A DNA stretch of 30,979 nt from a bacterium (lineage in GTDB: Bacteria; UBP18; UBA7526). Below are positions 999 through 27,840 of the stretch, piece by piece (within the stretch, counting starts at the first letter, position 1; each line of letters begins with the position of its first letter). The translations under genes and the position numbers were made by a program. Under the pieces are notes generated by a model that saw only the letters and a program-made list of their open reading frames with translations, was not told the DNA's origin and did not search any database. The stretch covers positions 1 to 30,979 of the forward strand of contig JAUXAI010000008.1 of assembly GCA_030619985.1 (NCBI GenBank). The letters are read 5' to 3'.

Positions 999-1890
999 GA
1001 TAAGATATAGTGCGGGAGGGCTCGCCCTATACGCCATCCTTCTTCCCGTAAAGATCCTTCCCCTTAGCCTCCTTCTCTGGGGAGGGAGATGTATTGGTCA
1101 CCTGGCTTATTATATTGACCGGAGGCATCGCAGAATAGGTCTGGAGAATATCAGAATGGCCCTGGGGAAAGAAAAATCCCCTCCAGAACTAAAGAGAATA
1201 ATAAAAGAGAATTATTGCCATATCGCTCAGGGTGGCTTTGAGATGCTCCGAGTAATGAAGTATGGAAAGAGATACGCCCATCTCTTAGCCATTGAGGGAA
1301 AGGAGAATCTGGATAAAGCCTTAGCTAAGGGGAAGGGAGCGGTTGCAGTTATAGGCCATATCGGGAATATTACTCTTCTGCTGCGAAAAATAGCCAACGA
1401 AGGCTATCCGGCGAGTGTTATAGCTAAGGTCCCTAAGGATAAGAGAGTGGCTCGGTTCATGCAGGAGCTGCGCGACCGCTCAAATATGGGAACCGTTCTT
1501 CCTAAGCCAAAAAGCCTGGCAATTAAGAAAGCTTTAACCTCGTTAAAAAGAGAGGAAGTCGTTATTATTCCCATCGATCAGAATGCCGGGAAAGAAGGGG
1601 TATTCGTTGATTTCTTTGGAAGGCCGGCCTCCACTCCAGCTGGCCCGGTGATCTTTGCCCAGAGAACCGGTGCTCCCCTGGTGCCCATGTACATTATTAG
1701 AGAAAGAAGAAAGAGGCATCGCTTAATCATAGACCCCGAGGTCCCCTTAGTTAATACTGGGAATAAAGAGAAAGATTTGATAACTAATACTCAAAGACTC
1801 ACCAAGGTTATCGAAAGATATGTTAGAAAATATCCCTCCCAGTGGTGGTGGGTGCATAATAGGTGGAAGAGCAAACCACCAGAAAAGTAG
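976..1890 (+). CDS. Lysophospholipid/lipid A acyltransferase, LpxL (HtrB) family, copy 2
   Basis: This 304-residue paralogue of the preceding gene probably arose by tandem duplication. They share the phrase IEGKENLDKALAKG, the segment after the catalytic His, a VDFFGRPASTPAG motif and the C-terminal ERYVRKYPSQWWWVHNRWK tail, which is typical of the family. The N-terminus (residues 13-40) is hydrophobic, which fits an inner-membrane enzyme. The dyad position again lacks the usual acid: the motif reads HIGNIT, with Thr where Glu is expected. It starts inside the end of copy 1, so the two are translationally coupled. It is followed by lpxK, which supports a lipid A role. The stop codon TAG lies inside a purine-rich octamer array. 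Confidence 0.83.
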   Translation: MLKKLRDKIRYSAGGLALYAILLPVKILPLSLLLWGGRCIGHLAYYIDRRHRRIGLENIRMALGKEKSPPELKRIIKENYCHIAQGGFEMLRVMKYGKRYAHLLAIEGKENLDKALAKGKGAVAVIGHIGNITLLLRKIANEGYPASVIAKVPKDKRVARFMQELRDRSNMGTVLPKPKSLAIKKALTSLKREEVVIIPIDQNAGKEGVFVDFFGRPASTPAGPVIFAQRTGAPLVPMYIIRERRKRHRLIIDPEVPLVNTGNKEKDLITNTQRLTKVIERYVRKYPSQWWWVHNRWKSKPPEK

Positions 1891-1917
1891 GAAAGTAGAA
1901 AAGTAAGAGAGTCAAAC
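1886..1917 (+). repeat. Purine-rich octamer array (4 units)
   Basis: Four consecutive 8-bp units read AGTAGGAA, AGTAGAAA, AGTAAGAG and AGTCAAAC. They fill the gap between the second acyltransferase and lpxK. The stop codon of the acyltransferase (1888-1890) is inside the first unit. No complementary right arm is visible. Confidence 0.6.
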
Positions 1918-1922
1918 CGAAG

Positions 1923-3002
1923 ATGGAGAAGTATTTACTGAGTATTATTTCAGATGAGAAAAGAGGTTTTTTCACTTCTTTCTTGCGTTTCATCCTTTTA
2001 ATTCTATCTGGGATATACTATTTGGGTCTTCAGGTTATCCGGTTTCTCTATCGGGTAAGGATTTTAAAGAGACTAAAGTTAAAGGCAAGGGTGATCAGTG
2101 CTGGAAATCTGACTGTAGGGGGAACGGGAAAGACCCCTGCAGTTGAGGGAATAGCAAGGCTTCTTCAGGAGAAGGGGAGAAAGATAGCGATACTGAGTAG
2201 GGGATATAAAAGGGTTAAGGGTCGAGGGTTAAGGGTTAAGGATGTGGCGGTGGTGACGGATGGGAAGGAGATTCTGTTGTCAGCAAAGGAGGCCGGAGAT
2301 GAGCCGTACCTCTTGGCTCAAAATTCATCAGGCATTCCCATAGTCGTAGGAAAGAATCGAATAAAAAGCGGGAATTACTGTTTAGCCAATTTTAATACAG
2401 AGACCTTTATCTTAGATGATGGATTCCAGTACCAGAGGTTGGAGCGCGATTTGGATATTCTGCTCATTGATAGCCTCAACCCCTTCGGCAATGGACACCT
2501 TCTGCCGCGAGGAATACTGAGAGAGCCATTGAGAAGTCTTAAGAGGGCAGACCTTTACATCTTGACCAGAACAGATCAAGTGAGGAATTTAGAGGGTTTG
2601 AAGAATAGAATAAGAAGTATTAATCCCTTTACTCCCATTCTGGAGAGCATCCATGCCCCCTGCTACTTAGAAGATTTGAAGAGCAAGAAGAAGTTCGACT
2701 TAGAATTTATAAAGGATAAAGAGGTCCTTGCTTTATCGAGTATCGCCCACCCAGAGTCCTTTGAAAAGACATTAAAGGACCTGAGGGCAATCATTATGAA
2801 GAGACTTCGTTATCCCGACCACCATCCCTATACCAAAGAAGACCTGGAAGAGATTAGTACTAAGGCCAGGGGCTGTCTCATCATTACCACCCAGAAGGAT
2901 GGGGTGCGCCTTGAGCCATTATTAGAGAATGAATCCATCCTCGCCTTAAGAATAGAACTGAAGATTACCAAAGACCAAGAGATCTTGGAGCAACTGCTGT
3001 AA
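1923..3002 (+). CDS. lpxK: Tetraacyldisaccharide 4'-kinase (LpxK)
   Basis: LpxK phosphorylates the 4' position of the tetraacyl disaccharide lipid A precursor, using ATP at the inner membrane. The 359-residue protein has an N-terminal hydrophobic helix (about residues 18-40), then the family P-loop SAGNLTVGGTGKTP (about residues 60-73), LSRGYKR, AGDEPYLLA and LDDGFQYQ (about residues 164-171), all LpxK signatures. The length is close to the family norm of about 330-350. The start ATG follows a weak GAAG. Oddly, the loop after LSRGY contains a 28-bp DNA heptamer array (2212-2239), which gives a basic stretch RVKGRGLRVK. It lies after two lipid A acyltransferases, which fits the pathway. Confidence 0.95.
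   Translation: MEKYLLSIISDEKRGFFTSFLRFILLILSGIYYLGLQVIRFLYRVRILKRLKLKARVISAGNLTVGGTGKTPAVEGIARLLQEKGRKIAILSRGYKRVKGRGLRVKDVAVVTDGKEILLSAKEAGDEPYLLAQNSSGIPIVVGKNRIKSGNYCLANFNTETFILDDGFQYQRLERDLDILLIDSLNPFGNGHLLPRGILREPLRSLKRADLYILTRTDQVRNLEGLKNRIRSINPFTPILESIHAPCYLEDLKSKKKFDLEFIKDKEVLALSSIAHPESFEKTLKDLRAIIMKRLRYPDHHPYTKEDLEEISTKARGCLIITTQKDGVRLEPLLENESILALRIELKITKDQEILEQLL
2212..2239 (+). repeat. Heptamer array inside lpxK
   Basis: Four consecutive 7-bp units read GGGTTAA, GGGTCGA, GGGTTAA and GGGTTAA. They are translated as part of LpxK, in a loop between LSRGY and the AGDEP motif that is normally variable. Being 28 bp long, the array would shift the frame if gained alone, so flanking bases must have changed too, or it arose by drift. 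Confidence 0.55.
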
Positions 3003-3004
3003 TT

Positions 3005-3067
3005 CGGTTACGTAACCGTAACCCTTTGACGATACGGACCTCGTTGCCGTAACCTCCAGACGTAACC
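3005..3067 (+). repeat. CGTAACC repeats with a perfect 14-bp palindrome
   Basis: The gap after lpxK holds CGTAACC four times (3011-3017, 3017-3023, 3048-3054, 3061-3067) and its reverse complement at 3006-3012. Bases 3005-3018 form the perfect palindrome CGGTTACGTAACCG. The unit is close to the AGTAACC heptamers at 4109 and 27669. Confidence 0.55.
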
Positions 3068-3088
3068 TAAAGAAGCAAGAGATTTCTT

Positions 3089-4120
3089 ATGGAATATAAG
3101 AAAATATTGGTGAAGGGAGTAAACTGGGTGGGGGATGCTATCTTCATTACTCCTGCCCTATCTACTTTAAGAAGTGGTTTTCCAAAAGCAAAGATCAGTC
3201 TTCTAGTTCCAGAAAATTTGGCCGAGATATACGAAGAAAATCCAAATATCGATGAATTGATCGCTTACCGACGAAAAGGGAGTCTAAAGGAGAGGATAAA
3301 ACTCATCAGAACTTTGAAAAAGAAGAGATTTAATTTGGGAATCATTATGCAGTCTACTTCTTATGAACCAGCCATCCTCCTATCTCTGGCAAGAATTCCA
3401 GAGAGGGTAGGGTATTCTCATAGTTTACGCAATCTTCTCTTAACCAAGGTAGTTGAACGTCCTAAAGAAGCCCAGCACGAGGTAGACTTCTTCTTAGGAC
3501 TTGTAAAATCTTTGGGGATAAAGGTGGAGAAGAAAGAAGTCTTCATGGCCGAAGATAGGGAAGCCAGAGAATGGGCGGAAAAGTTTCTAATCGAGAATGG
3601 CTACAGAGAAGGCGATCCACTCATCGGTATCTTCCCTGGGGCCTATTTCGGCTCAGCAAAGAGATGGTTTCCTGAGAGGTACGCTACTTTAGCTGAGCGT
3701 TTAATAAAAGATTATGAAGTCAGAGTAGTTCTCTTTGGCGAAAAGAACGACCTTCCTCTTATTCAGAAGATTATAGATAATATGATGGCTACCCCCATAA
3801 ATGCCACGGGAAAGACATCTTTAAAGCAACTCAGGGCATTAATCGAGAGATGTCACCTCTTTATTACTAATGATAGTGGTCCCTTACAGATCGCCTCTAC
3901 TACCAGGACGTCCATCATCGCTCTATTTGGCTCATCCGATCCTAAGAAGACTGGCCCCTGGAGAGAAGAGGGCTGTACCATCATCTATAAAAGAATTCCT
4001 TGCAGCCCCTGCTTCAAAAGGAAATGTAGAAGCCTCGTTTGTTTTAAGGCAATTACTGTTGAGGATATCCTCCGAGCAGCGAAAACATACCTAAGCCGTG
4101 AATGCCAAAGTAACCAGTAA
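3089..4120 (+). CDS. Glycosyltransferase family 9, ADP-heptose:LPS heptosyltransferase (WaaF-like)
   Basis: GT9 enzymes add heptose to the LPS inner core on the cytoplasmic face of the inner membrane. The 343-residue protein begins with VNWVGDAIFITPAL (the glycine-containing acceptor-side loop of heptosyltransferases), has IGIFPGA near residue 185, a K(T)SLKQLRALIERC segment near 246 and NDSGPLQIAS near 260, which belongs to the sugar-nucleotide site. A Cys-rich segment CSPCFKRKC near residue 308 is common in WaaF-type proteins. The start has only a weak upstream site (AAGAG). The last codons (SNQ and stop) are encoded by an AGTAACC heptamer array, so the natural C-terminus may have been altered. 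WaaF is the best guess; another heptosyltransferase specificity is possible. Confidence 0.85.
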   Translation: MEYKKILVKGVNWVGDAIFITPALSTLRSGFPKAKISLLVPENLAEIYEENPNIDELIAYRRKGSLKERIKLIRTLKKKRFNLGIIMQSTSYEPAILLSLARIPERVGYSHSLRNLLLTKVVERPKEAQHEVDFFLGLVKSLGIKVEKKEVFMAEDREAREWAEKFLIENGYREGDPLIGIFPGAYFGSAKRWFPERYATLAERLIKDYEVRVVLFGEKNDLPLIQKIIDNMMATPINATGKTSLKQLRALIERCHLFITNDSGPLQIASTTRTSIIALFGSSDPKKTGPWREEGCTIIYKRIPCSPCFKRKCRSLVCFKAITVEDILRAAKTYLSRECQSNQ

Positions 4121-4159
4121 CCAGTTAACAGTAACCAGTTTTAACTGTAAACTGTTAAC
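4109..4159 (+). repeat. Heptamer array with complementary right arm
   Basis: Four heptamers (AGTAACC, AGTAACC, AGTTAAC, AGTAACC) occupy 4109-4136. A right arm of AACTGTA and AACTGTT follows at 4143-4156. Bases 4124-4140 and 4143-4159 pair as an imperfect hairpin: 14 of 17 positions are complementary, with a three-base internal mismatch and a two-base loop. The stop codon of the GT9 gene (4118-4120) is within the array. Confidence 0.65.
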
Positions 4160-4185
4160 CCATTTCTACCTAAAGGAGAAACTGG

Positions 4186-5622: not shown

Positions 5623-5713
5623 AAGCGGGTCCTGCCTCGGCATTCTCTCTTCGTGGGCCCCTCCGCCCGGTGTAGATCCTCCCACTCATAGAGATCTGCC
5701 GAGCCACCCGCTT
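5623..5713. other. Long GC-rich interrupted hairpin (possible structured RNA or degenerate mobile element)
   Basis: Four stems nest in order. AAGCGGGT (5623-5630) pairs with ACCCGCTT (5706-5713), CTCGGCA (5636-5642) with TGCCGAG (5697-5703), TCTCT (5644-5648) with AGAGA (5690-5694), and GTGGG (5653-5657) with CCCAC (5681-5685). The last two are separated by a symmetric 4x4 internal loop, and the apical loop is about 23 nt. All pairs in these stems are Watson-Crick. The segment is clearly richer in G+C than its surroundings. A T5 run follows eight bases later (5721-5725), so it could act as a terminator or leader. No known riboswitch family was recognised. Confidence 0.55.
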
Positions 5714-5750
5714 ATCACAGTTTTTGAAAAAAGCCCAAAATAGGAAAGCA

Positions 5751-8965: not shown

Positions 8966-11413
8966 ATGAGAAGAAAAAAATGGTTGAAAATTACTTTAAG
9001 TATCATCTTAATCCTTGTTGTTGCTGTTGGAGTAGTTGTTACTTTAGTTCCCATCTCACCAAGGATGCTTTCTAAGTTTGGGATCTCTTTGGATGAGGTC
9101 TTAGCCAAGGTAGAGGTTAAGTTAGGCCGCAAGGCGAGCATAGGAGACTTCCGGCTCTATCTCTTAAGGGGAGGGACATTTGAGAATATCAAGATCGCCA
9201 ACCATGAGGACTTCTCTAAAACTCCCTTCTTCAAGACGGATAAGATGGTAGTTAAATATGCCCTCCTTCCTCTAATCCACAAGGAATTGGTCATCAAGAA
9301 GGTCGTTCTGGTCAAGCCCCAGATCCTCATTGAGAGAGATAAAGAGGGTGAGTGGAGCTTCTCCGATCTTGGCAAGACGCAGATGACCGCAGATCAAAGC
9401 GCAGATTTACGCAGATATCAGCGGCAATCTGTGTTCAAAATCAGCGGCCATCAGCGTTTAGCCTATGCTGCCACTGGAGAAGATAAACCAAAGAAGATGG
9501 CTATTACTGTTTCTAGTATTGCCATTCAGAAGGGAAGGATAATCTTTAACGATGAGGTTATTCCACAGGTTATGAGCATAGAGGACATTGACATCTTGGT
9601 AAGTAACATCTCGCAAGAGGAGAAAGCAGACTTCGATATTAGTTTAAATATCCCGGAAGAGATGGCTTCACCTCTAAAGATAAAGGCCTCTCTCAATCCC
9701 TTTACTCTTAAGGATAAAATGGATATAGATGTCAGAATAGATATTGACGACCTCAATTTAATCTATTTCGCTCCCTACTATAAATCCTTCCTTCCTGGGA
9801 AACTCCAGAGCGCAAAGTTGGATATTGGTTTAGATGTGGGATTAAGGGGGAAGGAAAAAATATCTTCCTCTGGAAAGATTGCTTTAAATAATCTTATCTT
9901 CATCATGACCAGAGGAGTTCCTTTGCCCATAACATTAGAGAGTTTTTCTATAGATCATGACTTAGGGATCGATCTGGAAAAGAACGATATTGATATAAGA
10001 AGATTGAACGTAAAAATAGAGGAGATATCCCTGAACGCTAAAGGCAAGATAAGCGACTTCAAAAAAGAGAGGATATTGAATCTCTCCCTTTTTACTGATC
10101 AGATTCCACTGAAGAGAGCAAAAAGCCTCGCCTCTTCTTTTGTTAGGGCACCTATTCTGAAGGAGATTGAGGTAGAAGGGACCATTGACCTGAAGGTTAA
10201 CCTAAAGGGAAAACTAAAAGAACTCGAGATAGATGGGGTGCTCAACCTGAATGATGATACCATTAAGTATGCCAAGATCAATCAGCCTTTAAGTAATATA
10301 AAATCGAGTATAAAGTTTAATAAGAGGGATATCGATATCCCAAGGCTCTCCGCCAATTTGGGAGGTTCCAACCTGGTCCTGAAAGGCAAGGTTATTAACT
10401 TCAGGAAGCCAAAATTAGACCTCCTTCTGACTTCAAATAAATTAGTCCTGAATGAACTGGTCAATATTGCTGCTAAACCTAGAGCAAAGAAGGGAGTGGC
10501 CATTGAGGGGATCGCCTCTCTAAATACCAGGATAACTAGTCCCACAAAGAAAATAAATCTTGTTGGAGATATCGGCATTCCCCAACTCAAAGTTGATAAA
10601 CTGAAACTGTCAAATACTAACTTAAACTATAGTTTTCAATTGGCGAAAAAGTTACTCACTATCAAATCTCTCAAGACCAACCTCTATCAAGGAGGCCTCA
10701 ATGCCTCTGGTAGCTTGAATCTATCCGACCCTAAAAAATTGGGGTATTCCCTAAAGGCCGATGCTAACGAAATTGACCTAAACGAACTCTTGACCACCAA
10801 TACTAATCTGAAGGATAAGTTTTATGGCACTTTAGGATTGGATTTAGAGATTAGAGGTAAAGGAACAAATCAAAAAGATTTAGAGAGGAATGCTTCGGGA
10901 AAGGGCTATCTGAACCTGGTTAAGGGAAAGATTACCGGCATCACCATCCAGAAGGAACTCATCAGGTTCTTATTGGGCATTCTTCAGATACCAGAGATAA
11001 AAGAGATTCACTATGATAGCCTCTCCGGCCACTTTAACTTGGCAGGAGGAGAAGTGAAGACAAACGACTTCAATCTGGATGGTAAGGAGATGAAAGTCCT
11101 GGCCTCTGGGAGCTACTTCCTCGATGGAAGGCTGGACTTTGATGTTACGGTCAAGCCCACCCCTTTCTTGATTGGCGCTTCCCCTATCCCCCCGCACTTA
11201 AAAGACGAGAGAGGAAATGCAGTAATTCCCTTTAGGTTAACGGGCACTACCCAGAAACCTAAATTTACACCCAAATGGGAGAAAATGATAGAAAAGGCAA
11301 TCAGGACCGAGGCAGAAAAACAATTAGAAAGGGCAGTAGGCAAAGAAGAGACCGAAGCAATTAAGGAAGTAATTAAAGGTATTGGGGATCTCTTTAAGAA
11401 GAAAAAAGAGTAA
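8966..11413 (+). CDS. AsmA-like envelope protein 1 (with in-frame repeat insertion)
   Basis: About 815 residues: a short basic N-terminus, one transmembrane helix (about residues 8-28), then a long beta-rich region typical of AsmA-family proteins. These sit in the inner membrane with the body in the periplasm and are implicated in lipid transport and outer-membrane homeostasis. The first about 130 residues and the last about 165 are clearly paralogous to the next gene (for example VVKYALLPLIHKELVIKKVV, and SGHFNLAGGEVKTNDFNLDG). The middle about 330 residues are extra. The start was placed at ATG 8966 because AGGAGGAAG precedes it; an ATG at 8909 overlapping the upstream stop would add 19 residues without a clear ribosome site. 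Residues about 137-166 are encoded by a repeat element. The tail ends in a Lys/Glu-rich helix. Confidence 0.8.
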   Translation: MRRKKWLKITLSIILILVVAVGVVVTLVPISPRMLSKFGISLDEVLAKVEVKLGRKASIGDFRLYLLRGGTFENIKIANHEDFSKTPFFKTDKMVVKYALLPLIHKELVIKKVVLVKPQILIERDKEGEWSFSDLGKTQMTADQSADLRRYQRQSVFKISGHQRLAYAATGEDKPKKMAITVSSIAIQKGRIIFNDEVIPQVMSIEDIDILVSNISQEEKADFDISLNIPEEMASPLKIKASLNPFTLKDKMDIDVRIDIDDLNLIYFAPYYKSFLPGKLQSAKLDIGLDVGLRGKEKISSSGKIALNNLIFIMTRGVPLPITLESFSIDHDLGIDLEKNDIDIRRLNVKIEEISLNAKGKISDFKKERILNLSLFTDQIPLKRAKSLASSFVRAPILKEIEVEGTIDLKVNLKGKLKELEIDGVLNLNDDTIKYAKINQPLSNIKSSIKFNKRDIDIPRLSANLGGSNLVLKGKVINFRKPKLDLLLTSNKLVLNELVNIAAKPRAKKGVAIEGIASLNTRITSPTKKINLVGDIGIPQLKVDKLKLSNTNLNYSFQLAKKLLTIKSLKTNLYQGGLNASGSLNLSDPKKLGYSLKADANEIDLNELLTTNTNLKDKFYGTLGLDLEIRGKGTNQKDLERNASGKGYLNLVKGKITGITIQKELIRFLLGILQIPEIKEIHYDSLSGHFNLAGGEVKTNDFNLDGKEMKVLASGSYFLDGRLDFDVTVKPTPFLIGASPIPPHLKDERGNAVIPFRLTGTTQKPKFTPKWEKMIEKAIRTEAEKQLERAVGKEETEAIKEVIKGIGDLFKKKKE
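9376..9461. repeat. In-frame inverted-repeat element inside AsmA-like gene 1
   Basis: Left-arm units end in CGCAGAT at 9378-9384, 9388-9394, 9400-9406 and 9410-9416. Right-arm units such as ATCAGCGG, AATCTGTGTT and ATCAGCGTTT follow at about 9417-9460 and are partial reverse complements of the left arm. The segment stays in frame and adds a Gln/Arg-rich linker that the paralogue at 11509 lacks. CGCAGA-type units are otherwise found between genes here (11408, 24654). Confidence 0.7.
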
Positions 11414-11464
11414 CGCAGAAACGCAGAATCTAAACAGAGAGACGCAGAGAAGTTTTCGGCGTTT
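11408..11464 (+). repeat. ACGCAGAA-type repeat after AsmA-like gene 1
   Basis: Units ACGCAGAA (11413-11420 and 11421-11428) and ACGCAGAG (11442-11449) are followed by a right segment containing TTCGGCGTTT (11455-11464), the exact reverse complement of AAACGCCGAA at 24665-24674. The first 17 bases, GAGTAACGCAGAAACGC, also occur at 24654-24670. The stop codon TAA of the upstream gene (11411-11413) lies in this shared 17-mer. Confidence 0.6.
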
Positions 11465-11508
11465 CCTATATATTCTGTGTCCCGGCGATTGCAAAGGAGG
11501 GAAGAAAA

Positions 11509-12951: not shown

Positions 12952-13036
12952 CACGAATAGACACGAACTGTTAGGCAAGAATGTAATAAACAAAACACGC
13001 CTGTCCGCCGTTAGTGTGGCGGAAATCTACACGAAT
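12950..13036. repeat. ACACGAA repeats flanking a TCCGCC/GGCGGA hairpin
   Basis: ACACGAA occurs at 12951-12957, 12961-12967 and 13029-13035. Between them TCCGCC (13004-13009) and GGCGGA (13018-13023) form a 6-bp stem with an 8-base loop. The TAA stop of AsmA-like gene 2 overlaps the first unit by one base. No T-run follows the hairpin, so an intrinsic terminator is unlikely. Confidence 0.5.
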
Positions 13037-13065
13037 AAATAGTATACAATATCTGAAGGAAAGAT

Positions 13066-18259: not shown

Positions 18260-18275
18260 ACAGCAAAGAAGTTGT

Positions 18276-18342
18276 CCAGTTAGCCAGTTAGCCAGTCATC
18301 CAGTTAAAAACCGGCAAACCGGTAAACTGGCAAACCGGCAAA
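18276..18342. repeat. Four-plus-four octamer inverted element, copy A
   Basis: The left arm 18276-18307 is four octamers: CCAGTTAG twice, CCAGTCAT and CCAGTTAA. After three A's, the right arm 18311-18342 is four octamers: CCGGCAAA, CCGGTAAA, CTGGCAAA and CCGGCAAA. The right arm reads approximately as the reverse complement of the left. The same design with different bases occurs at 23050-23115. AGATAAGG follows both, forming the ribosome-site region of the next gene. Confidence 0.75.
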
Positions 18343-18357
18343 CAGATAAGGTAATCC

Positions 18358-19347
18358 ATGAATCTCAGAAATACTGGTATTGCTATCGTTATCCTGGTCA
18401 TCCTTGGAGTTGTTATCTACCAACTCTACATTCCTCTGGATTCCAAGTCTCCTCAGGTTAAAGCCATTGAGATTTCAAGAGGAATGAATGCTAAAGGGAT
18501 CGCCCGCCTCTTAAGGAAAGAGAAGCTGATTAAAAATGGGTTAGCCTTTAGGATTTTGGCTAAGGTAAAAGGAGTAGAAAATAGGCTTCAGGCAGGGGAG
18601 TATGAATTAAGTTCTTCAATGAACCTTTCCAGAATCCTCTCCAGGATAAAGAAGGGAGAGGTTCTGGCCCATCCCTTCACCATTCCAGAGGGTTATAACA
18701 TTCGTCAGATTGCCTCAGTTTTAGAGGAAAAAGGTTTAGCAGAGAAAGAGAGATTCATTGCCCTGACCGAAGATGTTAAATTCGTTTCCCGGCTCGGCAT
18801 CCAAGCAAAGAGCTTAGAAGGATATCTCTTCCCAGAGACCTACCGAGTCTCCAAAGGAATGGAGGAAGAAGAGATCATCAAACTTATGGCCTCCCAATTT
18901 AACAAAGCAGTAACTGAGGAGGATAGGAAAAGAGCGGAAGAATTAAGATTTACTTTTCATGAGACCATTATCCTGGCCTCCATCGTTGAGAAGGAGACCA
19001 GTGCTCCAGAAGAAAGAACCCTTATCTCTGCTGTCTTTCATAATAGATTAAAAGCAAAAAGGCCCTTACAGGCAGATCCCACAGTCATCTATGCTCTGGG
19101 AGAGGCCTTCGATGGAGACCTGAAGAAGGAACATCTCAGAATAGATTCCCCCTATAATACCTATAGATATCGGGGTCTCCCCCCAGGTCCCATTGGAAAT
19201 CCGGGGAGAGAGGCCATTCAGGCTGCCCTATATCCAGCAGACGTCAATTACCTCTACTTTGTCTCTCGAAACGATGGGACCCACGAGTTCTCTTCCAGTT
19301 TAGAGGAACATAATAGGGCGGTATGGAAGTACCAGAAAAGACAATAG
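18358..19347 (+). CDS. mltG: Endolytic murein transglycosylase MltG (YceG family)
   Basis: MltG cleaves nascent glycan strands at the outer face of the inner membrane and may set chain length. The 329-residue protein has an N-terminal membrane anchor (about residues 6-24), a LysM-like region (about 38-100, with EISRGMNAKGIARLL) and the YceG catalytic domain. FTIPEGYNIRQIA lies near residue 102, LEGYLFPETYRV near 156, ASIVEKETSAPEER with the catalytic Glu near 212 and the PLQADPTVIYALG segment near 239. The end is YLYFVSRNDGTHEFSSSLEEHN, also typical. AAGG precedes the ATG. Its stop TAG overlaps the next octamer array. Confidence 0.95.
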   Translation: MNLRNTGIAIVILVILGVVIYQLYIPLDSKSPQVKAIEISRGMNAKGIARLLRKEKLIKNGLAFRILAKVKGVENRLQAGEYELSSSMNLSRILSRIKKGEVLAHPFTIPEGYNIRQIASVLEEKGLAEKERFIALTEDVKFVSRLGIQAKSLEGYLFPETYRVSKGMEEEEIIKLMASQFNKAVTEEDRKRAEELRFTFHETIILASIVEKETSAPEERTLISAVFHNRLKAKRPLQADPTVIYALGEAFDGDLKKEHLRIDSPYNTYRYRGLPPGPIGNPGREAIQAALYPADVNYLYFVSRNDGTHEFSSSLEEHNRAVWKYQKRQ

Positions 19348-19426
19348 GTTATCAGGTAATCAGGTAATTGGGTAATCAGGTAAAAGAAAAGACTGATCAC
19401 CGACAACTGGTCACTGATTGCCCAAT
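19346..19426. repeat. Octamer array (AGGTAATC type) with degenerate complementary arm
   Basis: The left arm 19346-19377 is four octamers: AGGTTATC, AGGTAATC, AGGTAATT and GGGTAATC, plus a decayed fifth. In the same phase 19395-19426 reads GATCACCG, ACAACTGG, TCACTGAT and TGCCCAAT, whose complements resemble left-arm units. The design matches the 4+4 elements at 18276 and 23050, with a longer 17-base spacer. Confidence 0.55.
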
Positions 19427-22007: not shown

Positions 22008-22304
22008 ATGAATAAATTGGATTTGGCGGTCTATATTGCCCGGAAGACGGGCCTCTTCCAGAAGGATGCTTTAGCCATCATCGATTGTCTGACAAAGACC
22101 ATCCAGGAGGCTTTGACTAAAGGGGATGAGGTGATCATCCGGGGCTTGGGAAAATTTGAAACAAAAGAGAGGTCAGCGAGAAAGATAAGGAATGTGGTCA
22201 CGGGAAAGGAGATTGAGATCCCGGTCCATAGGGTGCCTTTCTTCAAACCCAGCCAGAAACTGAAGAATAAAGTCAATAGTCAAAAGTCGATAGTCGGTAA
22301 TTAG
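22008..22304 (+). CDS. HU/IHF-family DNA-binding protein
   Basis: A small nucleoid protein, 98 residues, that bends DNA as a dimer. It begins MNKLDLAVYIARKTGLFQKD, has the core VIIRGLGKFETKER at about residues 44-57 and the DNA-binding arm RNVVTGKEIEIP near 61-72 ending in FFKPSQKLK. Whether it is HU or an IHF subunit cannot be told. TAAGGAAC precedes the ATG. The last codons (after KLKNKVN) are encoded by AGTCAAT-type heptamers of the downstream repeat, so the tail SQKSIVGN is probably not ancestral. It sits alone after the atypical helical-repeat gene. Confidence 0.92.
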   Translation: MNKLDLAVYIARKTGLFQKDALAIIDCLTKTIQEALTKGDEVIIRGLGKFETKERSARKIRNVVTGKEIEIPVHRVPFFKPSQKLKNKVNSQKSIVGN

Positions 22305-22371
22305 TGAACAGTGATCGGTTGTCTGTGATCTGTGCCTATCTGTAATAAATCTGTGTAAATCTGTGGTTTAG
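22271..22371 (+). repeat. Heptamer array followed by ATCTGTG repeats
   Basis: Heptamers AGTCAAT, AGTCAAA, AGTCGAT and AGTCGGT fill 22271-22298. After an AATT interruption come AGTGAAC, AGTGATC, GGTTGTC, TGTGATC and TGTGCCT (22303-22337). ATCTGTA and two AATCTGTG-type units end the gap. The first units are translated as the HU-protein C-terminus, and its TAG stop (22302-22304) spans the interruption. Confidence 0.65.
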
Positions 22372-22373
22372 AG

Positions 22374-23057
22374 ATGAAGCCTGTCTTTTCTCATTCCTGG
22401 GATTTGAGCCCTCAAGAGGCGATTAAACTACAGGAAGAGCTAAAAGAAAAGATTATTCTAAAAAAGGGCTTCTCTAAAATTAAGAGGATTGCTGGGGCAG
22501 ATATCTCTTTTTCTAAAAAGAGTAACAGAGCCTATGCGGCAGTAATTGTCTTCTCTTTTCCTGAATTAGAAATCTTAGAAGAAGAATATACTATAGGTAA
22601 CTTAAGTTTTCCTTATATTCCAGGTCTTCTTACCTTTCGGGAAGGACCTCTTCTCATCGAGACCTTTAAGAAGATTAAGATTGAGCCGGATGTTATAATA
22701 TTCGATGGCCAGGGGATAGCCCACCCCAAAAGATTAGGCCTGGCTACCCATATGGGAATCCTATTAGATAAACCAACCATCGGCTGTGCTAAATCAAAAC
22801 TAATTGGCACTTATCAAGAGCCAGAAAGAGAAAAAGGTTCCTATTCCCTACTAAAAGATGATGGTGAAATCATCGGCGCTGTTTTAAGAACAAAAGAGGA
22901 TGTCTCTCCCGTATTTGTTTCCCCCGGCCATAAGATAGATTTAAAAAGTTCAATAGAGATAGTCCTAGAATGCCTGAGAGGCTATAGACTACCCGAGCCC
23001 ACCCGTCAGGCCCATTTGTTAGTGAATAAGCTAAGAATAAAGGAGTTGTCTAGTTAA
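22374..23057 (+). CDS. nfi: Endonuclease V (deoxyinosine 3' endonuclease)
   Basis: Endonuclease V nicks DNA near deoxyinosine (deaminated adenine) to start repair. The 227-residue protein has all the main signatures: AGADISF with the catalytic Asp near residue 43, the wedge-type PYIPGLLTFREGP with the Tyr near 80 and Glu near 89, FDGQGIAHPKRLGLA with Asp near 110 and His near 116, then VSPGHKIDL near 183. The N-terminus (WDLSPQEAIKLQEEL) is also typical. The ATG has only a weak GAG upstream, and the leader is made of ATCTGTG repeats. The TAA stop is inside the first octamer of the next element. Confidence 0.95.
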   Translation: MKPVFSHSWDLSPQEAIKLQEELKEKIILKKGFSKIKRIAGADISFSKKSNRAYAAVIVFSFPELEILEEEYTIGNLSFPYIPGLLTFREGPLLIETFKKIKIEPDVIIFDGQGIAHPKRLGLATHMGILLDKPTIGCAKSKLIGTYQEPEREKGSYSLLKDDGEIIGAVLRTKEDVSPVFVSPGHKIDLKSSIEIVLECLRGYRLPEPTRQAHLLVNKLRIKELSS

Positions 23058-23115
23058 CCAGTTGTCCGGTTACCCGGTTAAAACTGGCAAACTGGGGGAC
23101 TGGCAAACCGGCAAA
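23050..23115. repeat. Four-plus-four octamer inverted element, copy B
   Basis: The left arm 23050-23081 is CTAGTTAA, CCAGTTGT, CCGGTTAC and CCGGTTAA. Two A's follow. The right arm 23084-23115 is CTGGCAAA, CTGGGGGA, CTGGCAAA and CCGGCAAA. The number, length and polarity of units equal those of copy A at 18276-18342, but the units differ. The stop codon of nfi (23055-23057) is in the first unit. AGATAAGG follows, ending in the ribosome site of the next gene. Confidence 0.75.
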
Positions 23116-23135
23116 CTAAAGATAAGGAGCATGCT

Positions 23136-24698
23136 ATGACCCTGACTGAGATGCTTGAGAGAAGCATTGAGAAGTATGGGAGAAGGTATGCTATTCTCTT
23201 CAAGAGGGAAAAAATCACCTATCGAGAATTGGGGGAGAGGGTTGATAGATTGGCCTCTGGCTTAATAAGAAAAGGAGCCAAAAAAGGGGATAGGATAGGG
23301 ATCCTATTGGGTAACTGTCCAAAGTTTATCATAAGTTATTTTGCCATTTTAAGGATGGGAGGAATCGTTGTTCCCCTGAATAATTTCCTGAAGGGAGAGG
23401 AGCTAAGATACATCTTAAATAATGCCGGAGTCTCCACTTTAATAACTTCAAAGGATTTTATGAAGACCGTAGGACCATTGCGTCCCCGGCTTGAGAGATT
23501 AGAAAGAGTTATTATTAGTAATAAATCACCCATCTCAGGAACGATTACCTTTGAAGAATTGGTGATCCCTGAGATCTCAGTTACCTTCCCTGAAGTGACA
23601 GAGACCGAGACCGCAGTCATTATTTATACTTCAGGAACTACTGGCTACCCAAAAGGCGCTTGCTTAAACCACAGCAATCTTATCTCTAATATTACCTCCA
23701 GTGCCCAAGCAGCAAGACTGAGACCAAGGGATAACTTCCTATTGATTCTTCCCATGTTCCACTCCTTCACTACCACAGTCTGCATCCTGGTTCCTCTCTA
23801 TCTGGGAGCGAAGATAACCATCGTTGAATCCTTGAAAGCTTTTGGGGTGATAAAAAGAGAGATTATTAAAAAGAGGCCCACTATCTTTGTTGCTATCCCG
23901 GCTGTCTATAATATCCTCGCGCAAGTCTCCCTTCCTAAAATACTCACCCTTCCTCCCTTTAAACTCTTAATTCCTTTGAGGCTTTTTATTTCTGGAGCAG
24001 CCGCCCTGCCAGTTGAGGTGTTAAAGAAATTTGAGAAGGGATTCGGCATCCCATTGATCGAAGGTTATGGTCTATCCGAGGCCTCACCCGTTGTCTCACT
24101 CAATCCCGTTAAGGGTGTAAGAAAACCGGGCTCTGTAGGACTTCCTTTACCTGGGGTGGAGGTGGATGTGGTTGACGACCGAGGCCGCTCGCTCAAAAGA
24201 GGAGAGGTAGGTGAACTCATTGTTAGAGGTCCCAATGTCATGCGCGGATATTACAACCTTCCTCGGGAAACAGAAGAGACCCTAAAGAGGGGTTGGCTCT
24301 ACACTGGGGACTTAGCCAAGATAGATGAGGACGGATATATCTATATCGTTGATCGCAAGAAGGATATGATCAATGTGCGTGGCCTGGCCGTCTATCCCAG
24401 AGAGGTAGAGGAGGTATTATACTCCCATCCGGCTATCGCTGAGGCAGCGGTCATTGGAGTAAAGGATAAGACGAAAAGGGAAGTGCCCAAGGCCTTTCTC
24501 GCTTTGAAAGAGGGAAGGAAACTTTCCAAGAAAGAGATCATCAAGTACTGTCAGGAGAAGTTAGCCTCCTATAAGGTCCCCCATAAGATAGAGTTCAGGA
24601 AAGAACTCCCCAAGACCTCAACAGGCAAGATACTAAAAAGAGCTCTAAAAGAGAGTAACGCAGAAACGCCGAAGGAGCAGAAACGCAAAGAAAAATGA
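23136..24698 (+). CDS. Long-chain acyl-CoA synthetase / AMP-dependent ligase
   Basis: This ANL-superfamily enzyme activates a carboxylate, most likely a fatty acid, to its acyl-CoA via an acyl-adenylate. The 520-residue protein shows the P-loop YTSGTTGYPKGA (about 163-174), LPMFHSF near 204, the adenine-binding EGYGLSEASP near 309, LYTGDLAKIDEDGYIYIVDR near 388-407 with the hinge region, and PKTSTGKILKRAL near 490 with the catalytic Lys. The set fits the FadD/long-chain group, though the exact chain length is unknown. AAGGAG precedes the ATG. The last 14 or so residues (NAETPKEQKRKEK) are encoded by a CGCAGAA-type repeat and are probably not ancestral. Confidence 0.88.
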   Translation: MTLTEMLERSIEKYGRRYAILFKREKITYRELGERVDRLASGLIRKGAKKGDRIGILLGNCPKFIISYFAILRMGGIVVPLNNFLKGEELRYILNNAGVSTLITSKDFMKTVGPLRPRLERLERVIISNKSPISGTITFEELVIPEISVTFPEVTETETAVIIYTSGTTGYPKGACLNHSNLISNITSSAQAARLRPRDNFLLILPMFHSFTTTVCILVPLYLGAKITIVESLKAFGVIKREIIKKRPTIFVAIPAVYNILAQVSLPKILTLPPFKLLIPLRLFISGAAALPVEVLKKFEKGFGIPLIEGYGLSEASPVVSLNPVKGVRKPGSVGLPLPGVEVDVVDDRGRSLKRGEVGELIVRGPNVMRGYYNLPRETEETLKRGWLYTGDLAKIDEDGYIYIVDRKKDMINVRGLAVYPREVEEVLYSHPAIAEAAVIGVKDKTKREVPKAFLALKEGRKLSKKEIIKYCQEKLASYKVPHKIEFRKELPKTSTGKILKRALKESNAETPKEQKRKEK

Positions 24699-24740
24699 TT
24701 TCAGCGTCTTTGTGTTAAATTCTGCGCCTCTGCGGTTGTA
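24654..24740. repeat. CGCAGAA-type inverted repeat overlapping the 3' end of the acyl-CoA synthetase gene
   Basis: The left arm (24654-24690) has GAGTAACGCAGAAACGC, shared with 11408-11424, and further AACGC units. The right arm (24700-24740) has GCGTCTTTGTGTT and CTGCGCCTCTGCGG, broadly the reverse complement. The left arm is translated. The TGA stop (24696-24698) falls between the arms. Confidence 0.65.
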
Positions 24741-24752
24741 AGGAAGAAGGAA

Positions 24753-26081
24753 TTGGCTAAGATAGTCATTATTGGATTGGGAACAGCGGGAATAAGCGCC
24801 TGCTTAACCATCAGGAAGAGATATCCTAAGAATGAAGTCATAATCATTGATAAAAAGGAATTCGACTTACTTCATTCCTGTGGTCTTCCCTTTCTCTTAA
24901 ATGGAAGAGTAGATTCTCCGGAGAAGTTGAAGTATACCTTAAGGATCTCTGGGATAAAGAAGCATCTAAATTGTGAAGCAATCGGGGTTATTCCTGAGAA
25001 AAAAAGCATTGAAATTGAGAATCTGAAGAGCGGCGAGAAGGGAAATATCTCCTATGACTCCTTAATCCTTGCTACGGGAACCACTCCCTTTATTCCTCCT
25101 ATTCCAGGACTAAGAAAGTTAAAAGATAAGAAAGCCTTCGTCATTAAGAGTCTAGAAGATATAGTGAAGATAAAGGGAGTGGCTAAGAAGGCGAAGGAGG
25201 CCTTAGTCATCGGCGCTGGAGCAACGGGATTGGAGGCCGCAGTTGCCCTGAATAAGAGAGGTCTGAAAGTCATCATTGTAGAGGCACTAAAAAGCCTTTT
25301 GCCCAGAGCGCTCGATTCCGATATGAGCGAAATTTTGGAAGAACGATTAAGAAAAAAGGGGATTAAGATACTCCTCAATAAAAGGGCGGAAAGGGTGGTT
25401 GGAAAGACGGTTACTATAAATGGAGAAGAGATCCCTAACGATATTATTATCATCTCTTGTGGAGTAAGACCAAACTCAGAACTGGCAAAGAAGGCAGGAA
25501 TCGAAATTAGTGATTATGGGGTCGTAACAGATGAGAGAATGGAGACGAGCATAAAGGGTGTCTATGCTGCTGGCGACTGCGCACAGGTCTCTTCCCTAAT
25601 AGACAAAAGGCCTTTCTCTGCCCATCTCGCTATCCCGGCCTACGAACAGGGCAAGGTGGCAGCAATCAATGCCTGTGGTGGTGAAGCAAGATATGAGGGA
25701 GCCCTGGCTACCTTCGTTTCCCTTATCGGTGATCTGGAGATAGCCTCTGTCGGTTTCAATAAGGTCCAGGCAGAATCTTATGGTTATCAAGTAGTGGAAG
25801 GCAAAGTGAGGAGTTTGATAAAGCCAAAGTGGTTTCCTGGTGGAAAAGAGATTACTTCTAAGATTATTGCAGATGCCAAGACAGGTAAGATATTAGGTGC
25901 CCAGGAAATTGGAGAGGAAGGAACAGGTTGGAGGATAAATATCGTCTCTCTGGCAATAAAGGCCGGTCTCTCTTTGGAAGATTTAAGTAAAGTAGAATTT
26001 GCTTACTCTCCAGCCACCTCCCATATCCCGGATGTTCTATTGACTGCTACCGATCTTGCCTTGAGGAAGTTAATAAGTTAA
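24753..26081 (+). CDS. FAD-dependent pyridine nucleotide-disulfide oxidoreductase (NADH oxidase / CoA-disulfide reductase type)
   Basis: 442 residues. The FAD-binding Rossmann motif is IIGLGTAGISA (about 5-15), and a single active-site Cys lies in HSCGLPF (near residue 42). This is the arrangement of NADH oxidases and CoA-disulfide reductases, not the CxxxxC pair of dihydrolipoamide dehydrogenase. The NAD(P)H Rossmann motif VIGAGATGLEAA is near 152, a second FAD motif GVYAAGDCAQVSS near 269 and a dimerisation domain occupies about 325-442 (YSPATSHIPDVL). It starts at TTG 24753 behind AGGAAGAAGG. The true substrate is open: O2, polysulfide or CoA disulfide are all possible. The stop codon begins an octamer array. 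Position before gcvT may be coincidental. Confidence 0.83.
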   Translation: MAKIVIIGLGTAGISACLTIRKRYPKNEVIIIDKKEFDLLHSCGLPFLLNGRVDSPEKLKYTLRISGIKKHLNCEAIGVIPEKKSIEIENLKSGEKGNISYDSLILATGTTPFIPPIPGLRKLKDKKAFVIKSLEDIVKIKGVAKKAKEALVIGAGATGLEAAVALNKRGLKVIIVEALKSLLPRALDSDMSEILEERLRKKGIKILLNKRAERVVGKTVTINGEEIPNDIIIISCGVRPNSELAKKAGIEISDYGVVTDERMETSIKGVYAAGDCAQVSSLIDKRPFSAHLAIPAYEQGKVAAINACGGEARYEGALATFVSLIGDLEIASVGFNKVQAESYGYQVVEGKVRSLIKPKWFPGGKEITSKIIADAKTGKILGAQEIGEEGTGWRINIVSLAIKAGLSLEDLSKVEFAYSPATSHIPDVLLTATDLALRKLIS

Positions 26082-26157
26082 TAAGTTGATAAGTTGATAA
26101 GTTAATAAGTTGATAAGTTGATAAGTTGATAAGTTGATAAGTTGATAAGTTGATAAG
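26070..26157 (+). repeat. Eleven-unit octamer array, TTGATAAG / TTAATAAG
   Basis: Eleven consecutive 8-bp units: TTAATAAG at units 1, 2 and 5, TTGATAAG at the other eight. The array begins inside the oxidoreductase gene, so its last codons (Leu-Ile-Ser, stop) come from the first unit and the start of the second. There is no complementary right arm. This is the most uniform array in the window. Confidence 0.9.
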
Positions 26158-26204
26158 TAATAAGAAGTAAAAACTCAAAAGGAAAAAGTTAACCTTGGTA
26201 AACA

Positions 26205-27299
26205 ATGTTAAAAAAAACTCCACTCTTTGAGACTCATAAGAGATTAGGGGCAAAGATTATCGAATTCGGTCCCTGGCTCATGCCCCTTTACTATACCTCT
26301 ATTGTAGATGAGCACAACACGGTGAGGAATAGGGTTGGCCTATTCGATGTCTCTCATATGGGGGAATTTAACATTAGAGGAAAGGATGCCTTAGCATTCG
26401 TTCAGAGACTTATTACAAATGATGCCTCTTATTTAGATAACAATCAAGTCCTTTACACCCCGATGTGTAATGATAAGGGAACGATCATTGACGATTTATT
26501 GGTCTATAAATTTAGTGATGAGCACTTTATGTTTGTGGTCAATGCCTCAAATATTGAGAAGGATTATAAATGGATAGAAGGGGTAGTTAAAAGATTTGGC
26601 AAAGATATAGTTCTTAAAGATATTAGCGATGAAACCCCCCTTCTTGCCCTGCAAGGTCCGAAGAGTCAAGAAACCTTACAGAAGGTAACAGATTTAGACC
26701 TTTCCCAGATAAAATATTATTGGTTTCAAAAAGGAATGATAGAAGAAATCCAGGTAATTATCTCGCGTACAGGATATACCGGAGAGGATGGCTTTGAGAT
26801 TTATATTAAACCCGAGTACGCCCCTAAAGTTTGGAATAAAATCTTAGAAGTAGGAAAAGAAGAAGGAATCAAGCCTATCGGCTTAGGAGCAAGGGATACT
26901 CTGAGGTTAGAATGCGCTATGCTCTTATATGGGAATGATATGGATGAGACAAGGACCCCTCTTGAGACGAACATCGCCTGGACAGTGAAGTCTGATAAAG
27001 AGAACTTTATCGGAGAAGAGGCTCTACTGAAACAAAAGGAAGAAGGAATAAAGCAGAAATTAATCGGTTTCGAACTCCTAGAGCGTGGCATTCCTCGCCA
27101 TAACTATCCCATTCTCAAAAACAGAGAAAAGATTGGAATAGTAACCAGTGGTGGTTTTTCTCCTACGTTGAAGAAGGGTATCGGCCTCGGCTATGTGAAA
27201 ACTGACTTTTCTAAAGAAGGAACCGAAATTCAAATCCAGATAAGAGAGAAATTAGTAAAAGCCCAGATTGTAAAAATCCCATTCTACAGGAGGAAGTAA
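26205..27299 (+). CDS. gcvT: Aminomethyltransferase, glycine cleavage T-protein
   Basis: GcvT moves the methylene group from aminomethyl-lipoyl GcvH to tetrahydrofolate and releases ammonia. The 364-residue protein has the family opening TPLFETHKRLGAKIIEFGPW, VGLFDVSHMGEF (about 45-56), the catalytic-Asp region NDKGTIIDDLLVYKF (about 89-103), GYTGEDGFEIYI near 191, GLGARDTLRLE near 225 and TSGGFSPTLKKGIGLGYV near 311. The ATG has no strong ribosome site in its AT-rich leader. It starts a four-gene operon: gcvH begins one base after its stop, and its own 3' end carries AGGAGG for gcvH. No glycine riboswitch was seen upstream. Confidence 0.96.
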   Translation: MLKKTPLFETHKRLGAKIIEFGPWLMPLYYTSIVDEHNTVRNRVGLFDVSHMGEFNIRGKDALAFVQRLITNDASYLDNNQVLYTPMCNDKGTIIDDLLVYKFSDEHFMFVVNASNIEKDYKWIEGVVKRFGKDIVLKDISDETPLLALQGPKSQETLQKVTDLDLSQIKYYWFQKGMIEEIQVIISRTGYTGEDGFEIYIKPEYAPKVWNKILEVGKEEGIKPIGLGARDTLRLECAMLLYGNDMDETRTPLETNIAWTVKSDKENFIGEEALLKQKEEGIKQKLIGFELLERGIPRHNYPILKNREKIGIVTSGGFSPTLKKGIGLGYVKTDFSKEGTEIQIQIREKLVKAQIVKIPFYRRK

Positions 27300-27300
27300 T

Positions 27301-27687
27301 ATGGAAATACCGAAGGAGTTGAAGTATGCTAAGACCCATGAATGGATAAAGGTTGAGAAAGAGATGGGAACGGTGGGTATCACGGATTATGCCCAAGAGC
27401 AATTGACGGATGTGGTCTTCGTTGAACTGCCCCAGATAGGCAAAGTTGTCTCTAAAGGAGAGGCAGTGGCCGTGGTGGAGTCAGTTAAATCTGTCTCTGA
27501 CATCTATGCCCCGGTGAGTAGTGAAGTAACCGGGGTAAATAAAGAATTAGAGAATAACCCAGGACTGATTAATAAAGAACCCTATGGAAAAGGATGGATC
27601 TTTAAACTGAAAATGAAGGACCCGAAGGAACTCGATTCTCTATTAAGTGCTGAAGAATATGAAAAAACAGTAACCAGTGATCGGTGA
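27301..27687 (+). CDS. gcvH: Glycine cleavage system H-protein
   Basis: The lipoyl carrier that shuttles the aminomethyl group between P- and T-proteins. The 128-residue protein has KYAKTHEWIKVE at the N-terminus, VGITDYAQEQLTDVVFVELP near residue 24, and the lipoylation site VESVKSVSDIYAPVSSEV with the Lys near residue 62. Downstream are the NPGLINKEPYGKGWIFKL and LLSAEEYEK segments typical of the family. The final TVTSDR codons and the stop are part of an AGTGATC heptamer array. The strong site AGGAGGAAG before the ATG lies in gcvT. Lipoate is attached by enzymes not in this window. Confidence 0.96.
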   Translation: MEIPKELKYAKTHEWIKVEKEMGTVGITDYAQEQLTDVVFVELPQIGKVVSKGEAVAVVESVKSVSDIYAPVSSEVTGVNKELENNPGLINKEPYGKGWIFKLKMKDPKELDSLLSAEEYEKTVTSDR

Positions 27688-27703
27688 TCAGTAATCGGTG
27701 ATC
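27669..27703 (+). repeat. Heptamer array, AGTAACC / GGTGATC type
   Basis: Five consecutive heptamers: AGTAACC, AGTGATC, GGTGATC, AGTAATC and GGTGATC (consensus RGTRAYC). The gcvH stop codon (27685-27687) is inside the third unit. The first unit is identical to those after the WaaF-like gene (4109-4136), 23 kb away. Confidence 0.7.
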
Positions 27704-27710
27704 TTAAGAT

Positions 27711-27840
27711 ATGAGTAAGGTGATGTGGGATTTGAGATTTTCTATCGCATATCACACATCGCACATCACATATCGCAATTCACTAATCCACCTAATCCAA
27801 CAAATCCACCTAATTATACAGTTCACTGTTCACGGTTCAC
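27711..27840 (+). repeat. Stacked short-repeat arrays between gcvH and gcvPA
   Basis: Three different arrays follow each other. ATCGCAT-type heptamers (ATCRCAN, five units, 27744-27778) come first, with a partly complementary GATATGAG/GTGATGTG arm just upstream at 27710-27728. Next is CTAATCCA with 8-9-bp spacing (27783-27817), the same unit as in the inverted repeat at 17812. Last are three heptamers AGTTCAC, TGTTCAC and GGTTCAC (27820-27840). This fills the largest gap in the window (170 bp) and splits the gcv operon in half. No promoter was recognised in it. Confidence 0.65.

What the first reader, a model, noticed from the sequence alone, without database searches (positions are those of the whole stretch)
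1886..27840. Nearly every intergenic gap carries a 7- or 8-bp-periodic array anchored at the upstream stop codon
Arrays or short inverted repeats follow lpxL copy 2, lpxK, waaF-like, both AsmA-like genes, alaS, ruvX, mltG, HU, nfi, the acyl-CoA synthetase, the oxidoreductase and gcvH. In nine of these the stop codon lies within, or overlaps, the first repeat unit (between the two arms for the acyl-CoA synthetase). Unit sequences differ (AGTAACC, CCAGTTAG, AGGTAATC, TTGATAAG, AGTCAAT, ATCRCAN), but unit length stays at 7 or 8. None sits 5' of a gene independently of a 3' end. Heptameric short tandem repeats (STRR) are known from cyanobacteria, but this set, with changing units and stop-codon anchoring, suggests one process that creates or maintains period-7/8 DNA at gene ends. 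Candidates are slippage, a targeted copying mechanism, or selection for mRNA 3'-end structure.
Basis: partly seen in the sequence, partly recalled or inferred. Interest (0 to 1): 0.78.

Follow-up and report, generated by a model that had tools for sequence, protein, structure and literature searches.

The report
Dispersed hairpin repeats between bacterial genes
The spaces between this bacterium's genes are mostly filled with dozens of kinds of small repeated hairpin-forming DNA pieces built from 7-10-letter words, which keep landing at gene ends and even inside genes and differ between sister species; the pieces at gene ends are not a product of the stop codons themselves.

Summary
The periodicity is real and genome-wide. 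In 551 intergenic gaps of this genome, self-match at lags 7 and 8 is 26-31 SD above dinucleotide shuffles, and coding DNA shows no such peak. The link to stop codons is weak: 18% of arrays overlap a stop, against 14±2% for random placement. Arrays avoid start codons (2% against 14%), occur in divergent gaps and lie in frame inside genes.

The units are not made locally at each stop. They belong to about 90 clusters of dispersed elements, typically 60-230 bp, whose two arms are inverted and 7-10-nt periodic. Such repeats cover 63% of intergenic bases, against 0.1-3% in controls. Between congeneric species (92% median protein identity), orthologous gaps usually carry different elements. In 59 of 172 tight gene junctions, one species has ≥60 nt of extra DNA. 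The stems do not look RNA-selected and lack U-tracts. Some words recur in unrelated phyla.

Best reading: non-autonomous dispersed elements that insert, with slippage secondary. Stop overlap follows from which insertions survive. How they move is unknown: no RAYT or RT was found.

The parts
1881..1905 (+). AGAAAAGT array (period 8) over the stop of lpxL copy 2; same family (GTAGGAAA) in the orthologous G002 gap
2210..2241 (+). in-frame AAGGGTT array (period 7) inside lpxK; G002 lpxK has an unrelated AATTCCC array at the same place
   Evidence: LpxK domain
3003..3070 (+). dispersed element after lpxK (TTCGGTTACG...CGTAACC); in G002 its outer parts remain and a different, AAATATC-type hairpin lies inside it
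4109..4160 (+). AGTAACC array over the waaF-like stop plus inverted arm (AACTGTAAACTG)
5625..5735 (.). GC-rich, non-periodic dispersed element, 90-94% identical copies at other loci; conserved in the orthologous G002 gap
11412..11490 (+). ACGCAGA-type element at the stop of AsmA-1; most of the G002 gap is a different element
12952..13050 (+). ACACGAA element after AsmA-2, conserved in G002; own copy has an extra small palindrome in the loop
17769..17830 (+). hairpin TAGTTGGATTA / TAATCCAACTA after alaS; G001 gap 13 nt, G002 a different element
18271..18345 (+). hairpin: CCAGTTAG array, loop, AACCGGCA array, between ruvX and mltG; different hairpins in G001 and G002; about 9 copies elsewhere in G001
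19346..19383 (+). AGGTAATC array over the mltG stop; shared with G001, absent in G002 (ACACGAA type there)
22269..22295 (+). AGTCAAT array inside the 3' end of the HU gene
22322..22365 (+). AATCTGTG decamer element; G001 has only about 22 nt in this gap; the word occurs in unrelated families
23046..23118 (+). second copy of the CCAGTTAG / AACTGGC family, spanning the nfi stop
24655..24741 (+). ACGCAGA hairpin with the acyl-CoA synthetase stop between its arms; the left arm is translated as a new C-terminus; the G002 genes overlap by 8 nt here
26067..26158 (+). AAGTTGAT array, 11.5 copies, over the oxidoreductase stop; G001 gap 53 nt, G002 a different element
27675..27841 (+). stack of several elements between gcvH and gcvPA; in G002 the genes overlap by 4 nt and in G001 about 11 nt separate the aligned parts

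Best explanation
The arrays are the arms of dispersed, non-autonomous repeat elements (about 60-230 bp; dozens of sequence families) that share one architecture: two inverted arms, each a run of 7-10-nt units, around a loop. Copies arise elsewhere in the genome and insert at many sites, in a process whose enzyme is unknown. Copies survive where they do little harm: between a stop and the next ribosome-binding site, at ATGA junctions if they bring a stop and leave or bring a Shine-Dalgarno sequence, or in frame in tolerant protein loops. An insertion in the last codons of a gene supplies the new stop, which is why stops fall in the first unit. After insertion, slippage changes the unit number; copying between the two arms (quasi-palindrome correction) may keep them complementary. 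Shown: dispersal, architecture, turnover, in-frame copies, unit-sized indels. Inferred: that insertion rather than deletion dominates, the survival filter, arm correction, and that one machinery serves all families.
For: 63% of intergenic bases have non-self copies, against 0.1% for shuffled, 2.9% for mirrored and 7% for coding DNA. 99% of hairpin gaps have non-self copies. Hairpins score 14 or more in 25-34% of gaps, against 0.5-1% in shuffles. Lag peaks of the 89 clusters concentrate at 7, 8 and 10 (27, 17 and 10 clusters, against 7, 10 and 7 in the control). Own and G002 share 51 of 117 units, against 6 for mirrored units. Of 84 own array or hairpin gaps compared, the element is absent from the orthologous G002 gap in 48; in 45 of those the family lies elsewhere in G002. 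59 of 172 tight junctions are filled in one species only. The gcvH-gcvPA junction is near-empty in both G001 and G002, so a gain in the own lineage is simplest. In-frame arrays inside orthologous genes. Unit-sized indels.
Against: No consistent target-site duplication is visible at this divergence (aligned parts of G001 are 81-88% identical); breakpoint overlaps between own and G002 run from -91 to +31. No mobilising enzyme was found: no Y1_Tnp and no RVT_1, though the genomes are incomplete and other transposases were not searched. Single-linkage clustering may merge or split families. Direction (gain or loss) is polarised only at a few window junctions.
Confidence: 0.68

Rival explanations
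1. In-situ slippage: arrays are born at each gene end from a chance duplication and expand by polymerase slippage, with 7-8 nt favoured by the polymerase footprint (Mrazek's idea for heptamers, cited in PMC4679880 and PMC4692102).
For: Period 7/8 dominates; tandem indels in alignable gaps are mostly 7, 8, 10, 14 or 16 nt.
Against: Cannot make inverted arms, or the same whole stem-loops at many loci. Units are a shared word list, 51 shared against 6 for mirrored units. Whole stretches of 60 to several hundred nt are present in one sister species and absent from the other.
Confidence: 0.12
2. Selected RNA structures: hairpins at mRNA 3' ends that terminate transcription or protect mRNA, with fast sequence turnover.
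For: Stem-loops are far above chance; similar copies keep the same gene-relative orientation 70% of the time; arrays avoid start codons.
Against: G.T is not in excess over A.C in sense-strand stems (209 against 291; 299 against 316), whereas tRNA acceptor stems give 8 against 0. T content 3' of stems equals background (0.268 against 0.270). They split ATGA-coupled genes and lie inside coding sequence. Rfam finds no known family in the window.
Confidence: 0.1
3. A templated generator: an enzyme copies short templates repeatedly to make periodic DNA, which is then inserted at gene ends.
For: Dozens of unrelated unit sequences share a 7-10-nt step, and the same words occur in unrelated lineages.
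Against: No reverse-transcriptase domain in four genomes of the family. Near-identical long copies of some families (90-94% over about 100 nt) look like ordinary copying of existing elements.
Confidence: 0.07
4. Assembly or binning artefact of metagenome data.
For: The genome is a fragmented draft (91 contigs, 83.65% complete), and repeats are assembly-prone.
Against: Some arrays are conserved at orthologous places in two separate drafts, the word list is shared, and the sites keep genes in frame.
Confidence: 0.02

Closest known systems
GGGAATC heptamer repeats of Xanthomonas and GGGGA(C/T)T of Nostoc (PMC4692102)
   Same: Tandem heptamers; in Xanthomonas 89-93% intergenic, much nearer the upstream gene (28 nt on average) than the downstream one (160 nt), often paired as inverted repeats, a few intragenic, and not at the same genes in related species
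   Different: One word per organism, period 7, G-rich; here dozens of words, periods 7-10, about two thirds of intergenic DNA, many splitting overlapping genes
TAACTGA heptamers of Beggiatoaceae and cyanobacteria (PMC4679880), and the cyanobacterial STRR (from general knowledge)
   Same: Short direct heptamer repeats between genes, sporadic over phyla, indels mostly in 7-nt steps, no evident means of spread
   Different: In the Beggiatoaceae genome TAACTGA lies mainly just upstream of start codons; here the start/RBS zone is avoided and arms are inverted
REP/REPIN elements with RAYT transposases (PMC3733652, PMC3116915)
   Same: Small dispersed palindromes, mostly between co-directional or convergent genes, downstream of coding regions; some families in several species; some inside genes
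   Different: REPs are 20-40 bp with GTAG or CGTC tags; no Y1 transposase was found here and arms are tandem repeats
Rickettsia palindromic elements (as reviewed in PMC10969869)
   Same: Several families of palindromic elements inserted in frame into unrelated genes
   Different: RPEs are about 150 bp and noted mainly inside genes; here most copies are intergenic, with periodic arms
MITEs (PMC10969869)
   Same: Short non-autonomous inverted-repeat elements; the CCCCGCACCTT family here fits well
   Different: The periodic families show no consistent target duplication and no partner transposon was identified

Membership tests
Heptameric simple sequence repeats / STRR | tandem head-to-tail units of about 7 nt, mainly intergenic | tested here: met
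   but period 8 is as common and 9-10 occur
Heptameric simple sequence repeats / STRR | one or a few unit sequences per genome | tested here: not met
   149 distinct consensus units in the own genome
REP/REPIN | 20-40 bp palindrome with GTAG/CGTC tag | tested here: not met
   length not met: 5-95 percentile 58-227 nt. The tag was not searched for systematically
REP/REPIN | associated Y1 (RAYT) transposase | tested here: not met
   no PF01797 match in the held genome, which is 83.65% complete
MITE | short, dispersed, inverted-repeat element | tested here: met
MITE | target-site duplication | tested here: inconclusive
   no consistent length for periodic families; clear TGAA duplication only in the CCCCGCACCTT family
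MITE | related autonomous transposon or transposase | not tested
   only PF01797 and PF00078 were searched
Rickettsia palindromic elements | palindromic element inserted in frame in coding genes | tested here: met
   sequence relation to RPE families not tested
Intrinsic terminators | hairpin followed by U-tract | tested here: not met
   T fraction 3' of stems equals background
Intrinsic terminators / RNA elements | stems maintained at RNA level (G.U tolerated on sense strand) | tested here: not met
   no G.T excess over A.C; tRNA control 8 against 0

The most novel reading that the evidence does not exclude
A widespread, undescribed superfamily of dispersed hairpin elements whose arms are 7-10-nt periodic, with a shared list of unit words across unrelated bacterial phyla, produced and spread by one common and still unknown machinery that turns over most of the intergenic DNA of some lineages.
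Probability: 0.33. Interest if true: 0.85.

Novelty: new variant of a known kind. Interest (0 to 1): 0.6.

Why it matters
Heptamer repeats in bacteria have been treated one word at a time (GGGAATC in Xanthomonas, TAACTGA in Beggiatoaceae), with the origin left open. Here dozens of words share one architecture, sit in one genome, make up about two thirds of its intergenic DNA and change between sister species. That makes the open question of how such repeats arise and spread directly testable: the same junction can be read empty and filled in congeneric species. It also bears on how intergenic regions, operon junctions and protein loops evolve, and on annotation, because many C-termini and some internal loops in these genomes are repeat-derived. 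If the word list is truly shared between phyla, it points either to unnoticed horizontal movement of very small elements or to a common generating enzyme.

Tried and rejected
Rfam scan of the window: nothing. tRNAs or tmRNA in the window: none. RAYT/REPIN route: no Y1_Tnp in the own genome, while the same search rings in 5 of 14 control genomes. Reverse transcriptase (telomerase-like or retron-like copying): no RVT_1 in four genomes of the family. Terminator reading: rejected by U-tract and G.U tests. Strict stop-codon anchoring: rejected as a rule. A single target-site duplication for all families: not found. Sharing of units with the 118 stretches fetched by one word (16 against 4 for mirrored units) proved to come mostly from near relatives, so it was not used as evidence for cross-phylum sharing. 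Literature searches for the words themselves found nothing relevant. Genes were called with a home-made hexamer caller, so start positions are approximate.
Full report
WHAT WAS CLAIMED.

THE GENOME. The window is contig C49 of a draft genome of 1.25 Mb in 91 contigs, 83.65% complete. 0.97 Mb were fetched (GC 0.44) and genes were called with a hexamer model. Two congeneric genomes are held: G001 and G002. A 144,282-base contig length shared by G002 and L182 suggests that G002 is the MAG CSMAG_2709 (JAUWYL010000002.1). 0.81 Mb of G002 were fetched and give 504 reciprocal best hits at 92% median protein identity. No higher-rank relatives beyond this one family appeared in the first 41 genomes listed, so the lineage is poorly sampled.

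OBSERVATION. TRF finds the arrays. Genome-wide, the chance of a match at lag 7 or 8 in 551 gaps is 0.319, against 0.268 in dinucleotide shuffles (z = 26 and 31). Lags 10, 14, 16, 21 and 24 are also raised, and coding DNA shows no peak at 7 or 8. 105 gaps contain a strong array; none of the shuffled gaps does.

STOP CODONS. Over 367 arrays in co-directional gaps of both genomes, 18.3% overlap the stop, against 14.0±1.8% under uniform placement, and 28% begin within -8..+12 of it, against 18±2%. Only 2% overlap the next start codon, against 14±2%. So the stronger rule is avoidance of the start/RBS zone. Arrays also occur in 3 of 17 divergent gaps, which have no 3' end, and inside long open frames. 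The genome is almost wholly co-directional (908 of 929 neighbours), so in the window every gap is necessarily downstream of a stop.

ARCHITECTURE. The arrays are often one arm of an inverted pair. Hairpin score 14 or more is found in 25% (own) and 34% (G002) of gaps, against 0.5-1% in shuffles. Folding of eight window elements as DNA gives z to -4.7, although some, such as the pure 11.5-copy array at 26067, do not fold. Clustering 265 hairpins from both genomes gives 89 clusters; 27 peak at lag 7, 17 at 8, 6 at 9 and 10 at 10, against an even spread in shuffled arms. So the shared period crosses sequence-unrelated clusters.

DISPERSAL. Searching each own gap against the rest of the genome, 99% of hairpin-bearing gaps have non-self copies. 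Non-self repeats cover 63% of all intergenic bases, against 0.1% for shuffled, 2.9% for mirrored and 7.3% for coding segments. The ruvX-mltG and nfi gaps of the window hold copies of the same family. The ruvX-mltG element has about nine matches elsewhere in G001, yet the orthologous G001 gap holds a different hairpin.

TURNOVER. Of 84 own gaps with arrays or hairpins compared with their G002 orthologue, 48 lack the element there, and in 45 of these the family is found elsewhere in G002. In the window itself most gaps differ wholly between own and G002. Of 172 tight junctions (gap 15 nt or less in one species), 59 hold 60 nt or more in the other, including many four-base ATGA overlaps; a few of these may be gene-calling differences rather than insertions (for example items 12, 17-type GC-rich elements, 21 and 56). 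The gcvH-gcvPA junction overlaps by 4 nt in G002 and has about 11 nt between aligned parts in G001, while own carries 170 nt; since own is nearer G001 (mltG 90% against 86%), a gain in own is the simplest reading. Inside genes, 138 insertions of 24 nt or more separate own and G002 orthologues, and the most repetitive are heptamer or octamer arrays. In lpxK and in gene C86_28 the two species have unrelated arrays at about the same place in the protein.

WHAT IT IS NOT. Stem mismatches scored without bias show no excess of G.T over A.C on the sense strand (209 against 291; 299 against 316); tRNA acceptor stems, as a control, give 8 against 0. There is no T-rich tract 3' of stems. Rfam finds nothing in the window. 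RNA-level selection as the main cause is therefore unlikely. No RAYT-type transposase and no reverse transcriptase was found.

SLIPPAGE. In 92 alignable orthologous gaps, the 14 indels that look like tandem gains or losses are mostly 7, 8, 10, 14 or 16 nt. Slippage thus changes arrays after they arrive.

OTHER LINEAGES. In a panel of diverse genomes with the pattern read backwards as control, CAAAATG x3 is in 5 unrelated families (control 0), and AATCTGTGNNAATCTGTG in 5 unrelated families (control 0); AGTTGATAAGTTGATAAG was found only inside the own family in a 154-genome panel. Several of the distant copies are visibly hairpins (L144 Desantisbacteria, L175 Elusimicrobia, L199 Syntrophaceae, L293, L294). 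The sharing is suggestive, resting on three words.

MECHANISM, COMMITTED. Dispersed non-autonomous elements insert; most insertions that survive are between stop and RBS, at coupled junctions, or in frame in tolerant loops. In filled alleles a Shine-Dalgarno-like motif lies in the last 20 nt in 81% of cases; across gaps of 60 nt or more it is 72-73%, against 11-14% in gap interiors. Insertion and the survival filter are inferred from comparison, not observed. No constant target duplication was seen for periodic families; one 8-nt candidate is AATGCCCA around the element at C28:8941.

COMPARISON WITH THE KNOWN. The closest precedent is the Xanthomonas GGGAATC set (PMC4692102): tandem heptamers, near the upstream gene, often in inverted pairs, a few intragenic, species-variable. 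TAACTGA repeats (PMC4679880) and cyanobacterial STRR are further relatives in kind. REP/REPIN and RPE share dispersal and in-frame insertion (PMC3733652, PMC10969869) but fail or lack defining features tested here. The finding is a new variant of a known kind: many words, periods 7-10, mass occupation of gaps.

Noticed in passing
own genome, e.g. C14:3386, C19:1674, C33:4069, C41:3611, C43:11744, C48:6151; G002 C44:1260, C45:11123: A MITE-like family with ends CCCCGCACCTT / AAGGTGCGGGG, about 62-230 bp, often flanked by TGAA on both sides. At ATGA overlaps the upstream copy keeps the TGA stop and the element end plus the second copy reads AAGGTGCGGGGTGAA, i.e. a Shine-Dalgarno-like AAGGTG and a GTG start: an element apparently suited to splitting coupled genes.
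   Followed up: partly
whole genome: Gene orientation is extremely uniform: 908 of 929 neighbouring gene pairs are co-directional.
   Followed up: no
own contig C58:1-5474 and G002 contig C3: Several neighbouring genes are 98-100% identical in protein and one 201-nt gap is 100% identical between own and G002, while the next gene is 80% identical and the genome median is 92%: recent exchange or a mixed contig.
   Followed up: no
many gaps, last 28 nt before start codons: A right-end motif CCGA(A/G)CGNAGTGAGG sits just before start codons in 12-14% of gaps of 60 nt or more, against 1% in gap interiors, and supplies the Shine-Dalgarno GAGG.
   Followed up: partly
5625-5735: A non-periodic GC-rich dispersed element with 90-94% identical copies elsewhere, conserved in place in G002.
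   Followed up: partly
9395-9455: Inside AsmA-1 a stretch CGCAGATTTACGCAGATATCAGCGGCAATCTGTG looks by eye like an in-frame copy of the CGCAGATT / AATCTGTG families.
   Followed up: no
L294 (G206:C135): In an unrelated genome a CAAAATG hairpin sits between two tRNA genes.
   Followed up: no
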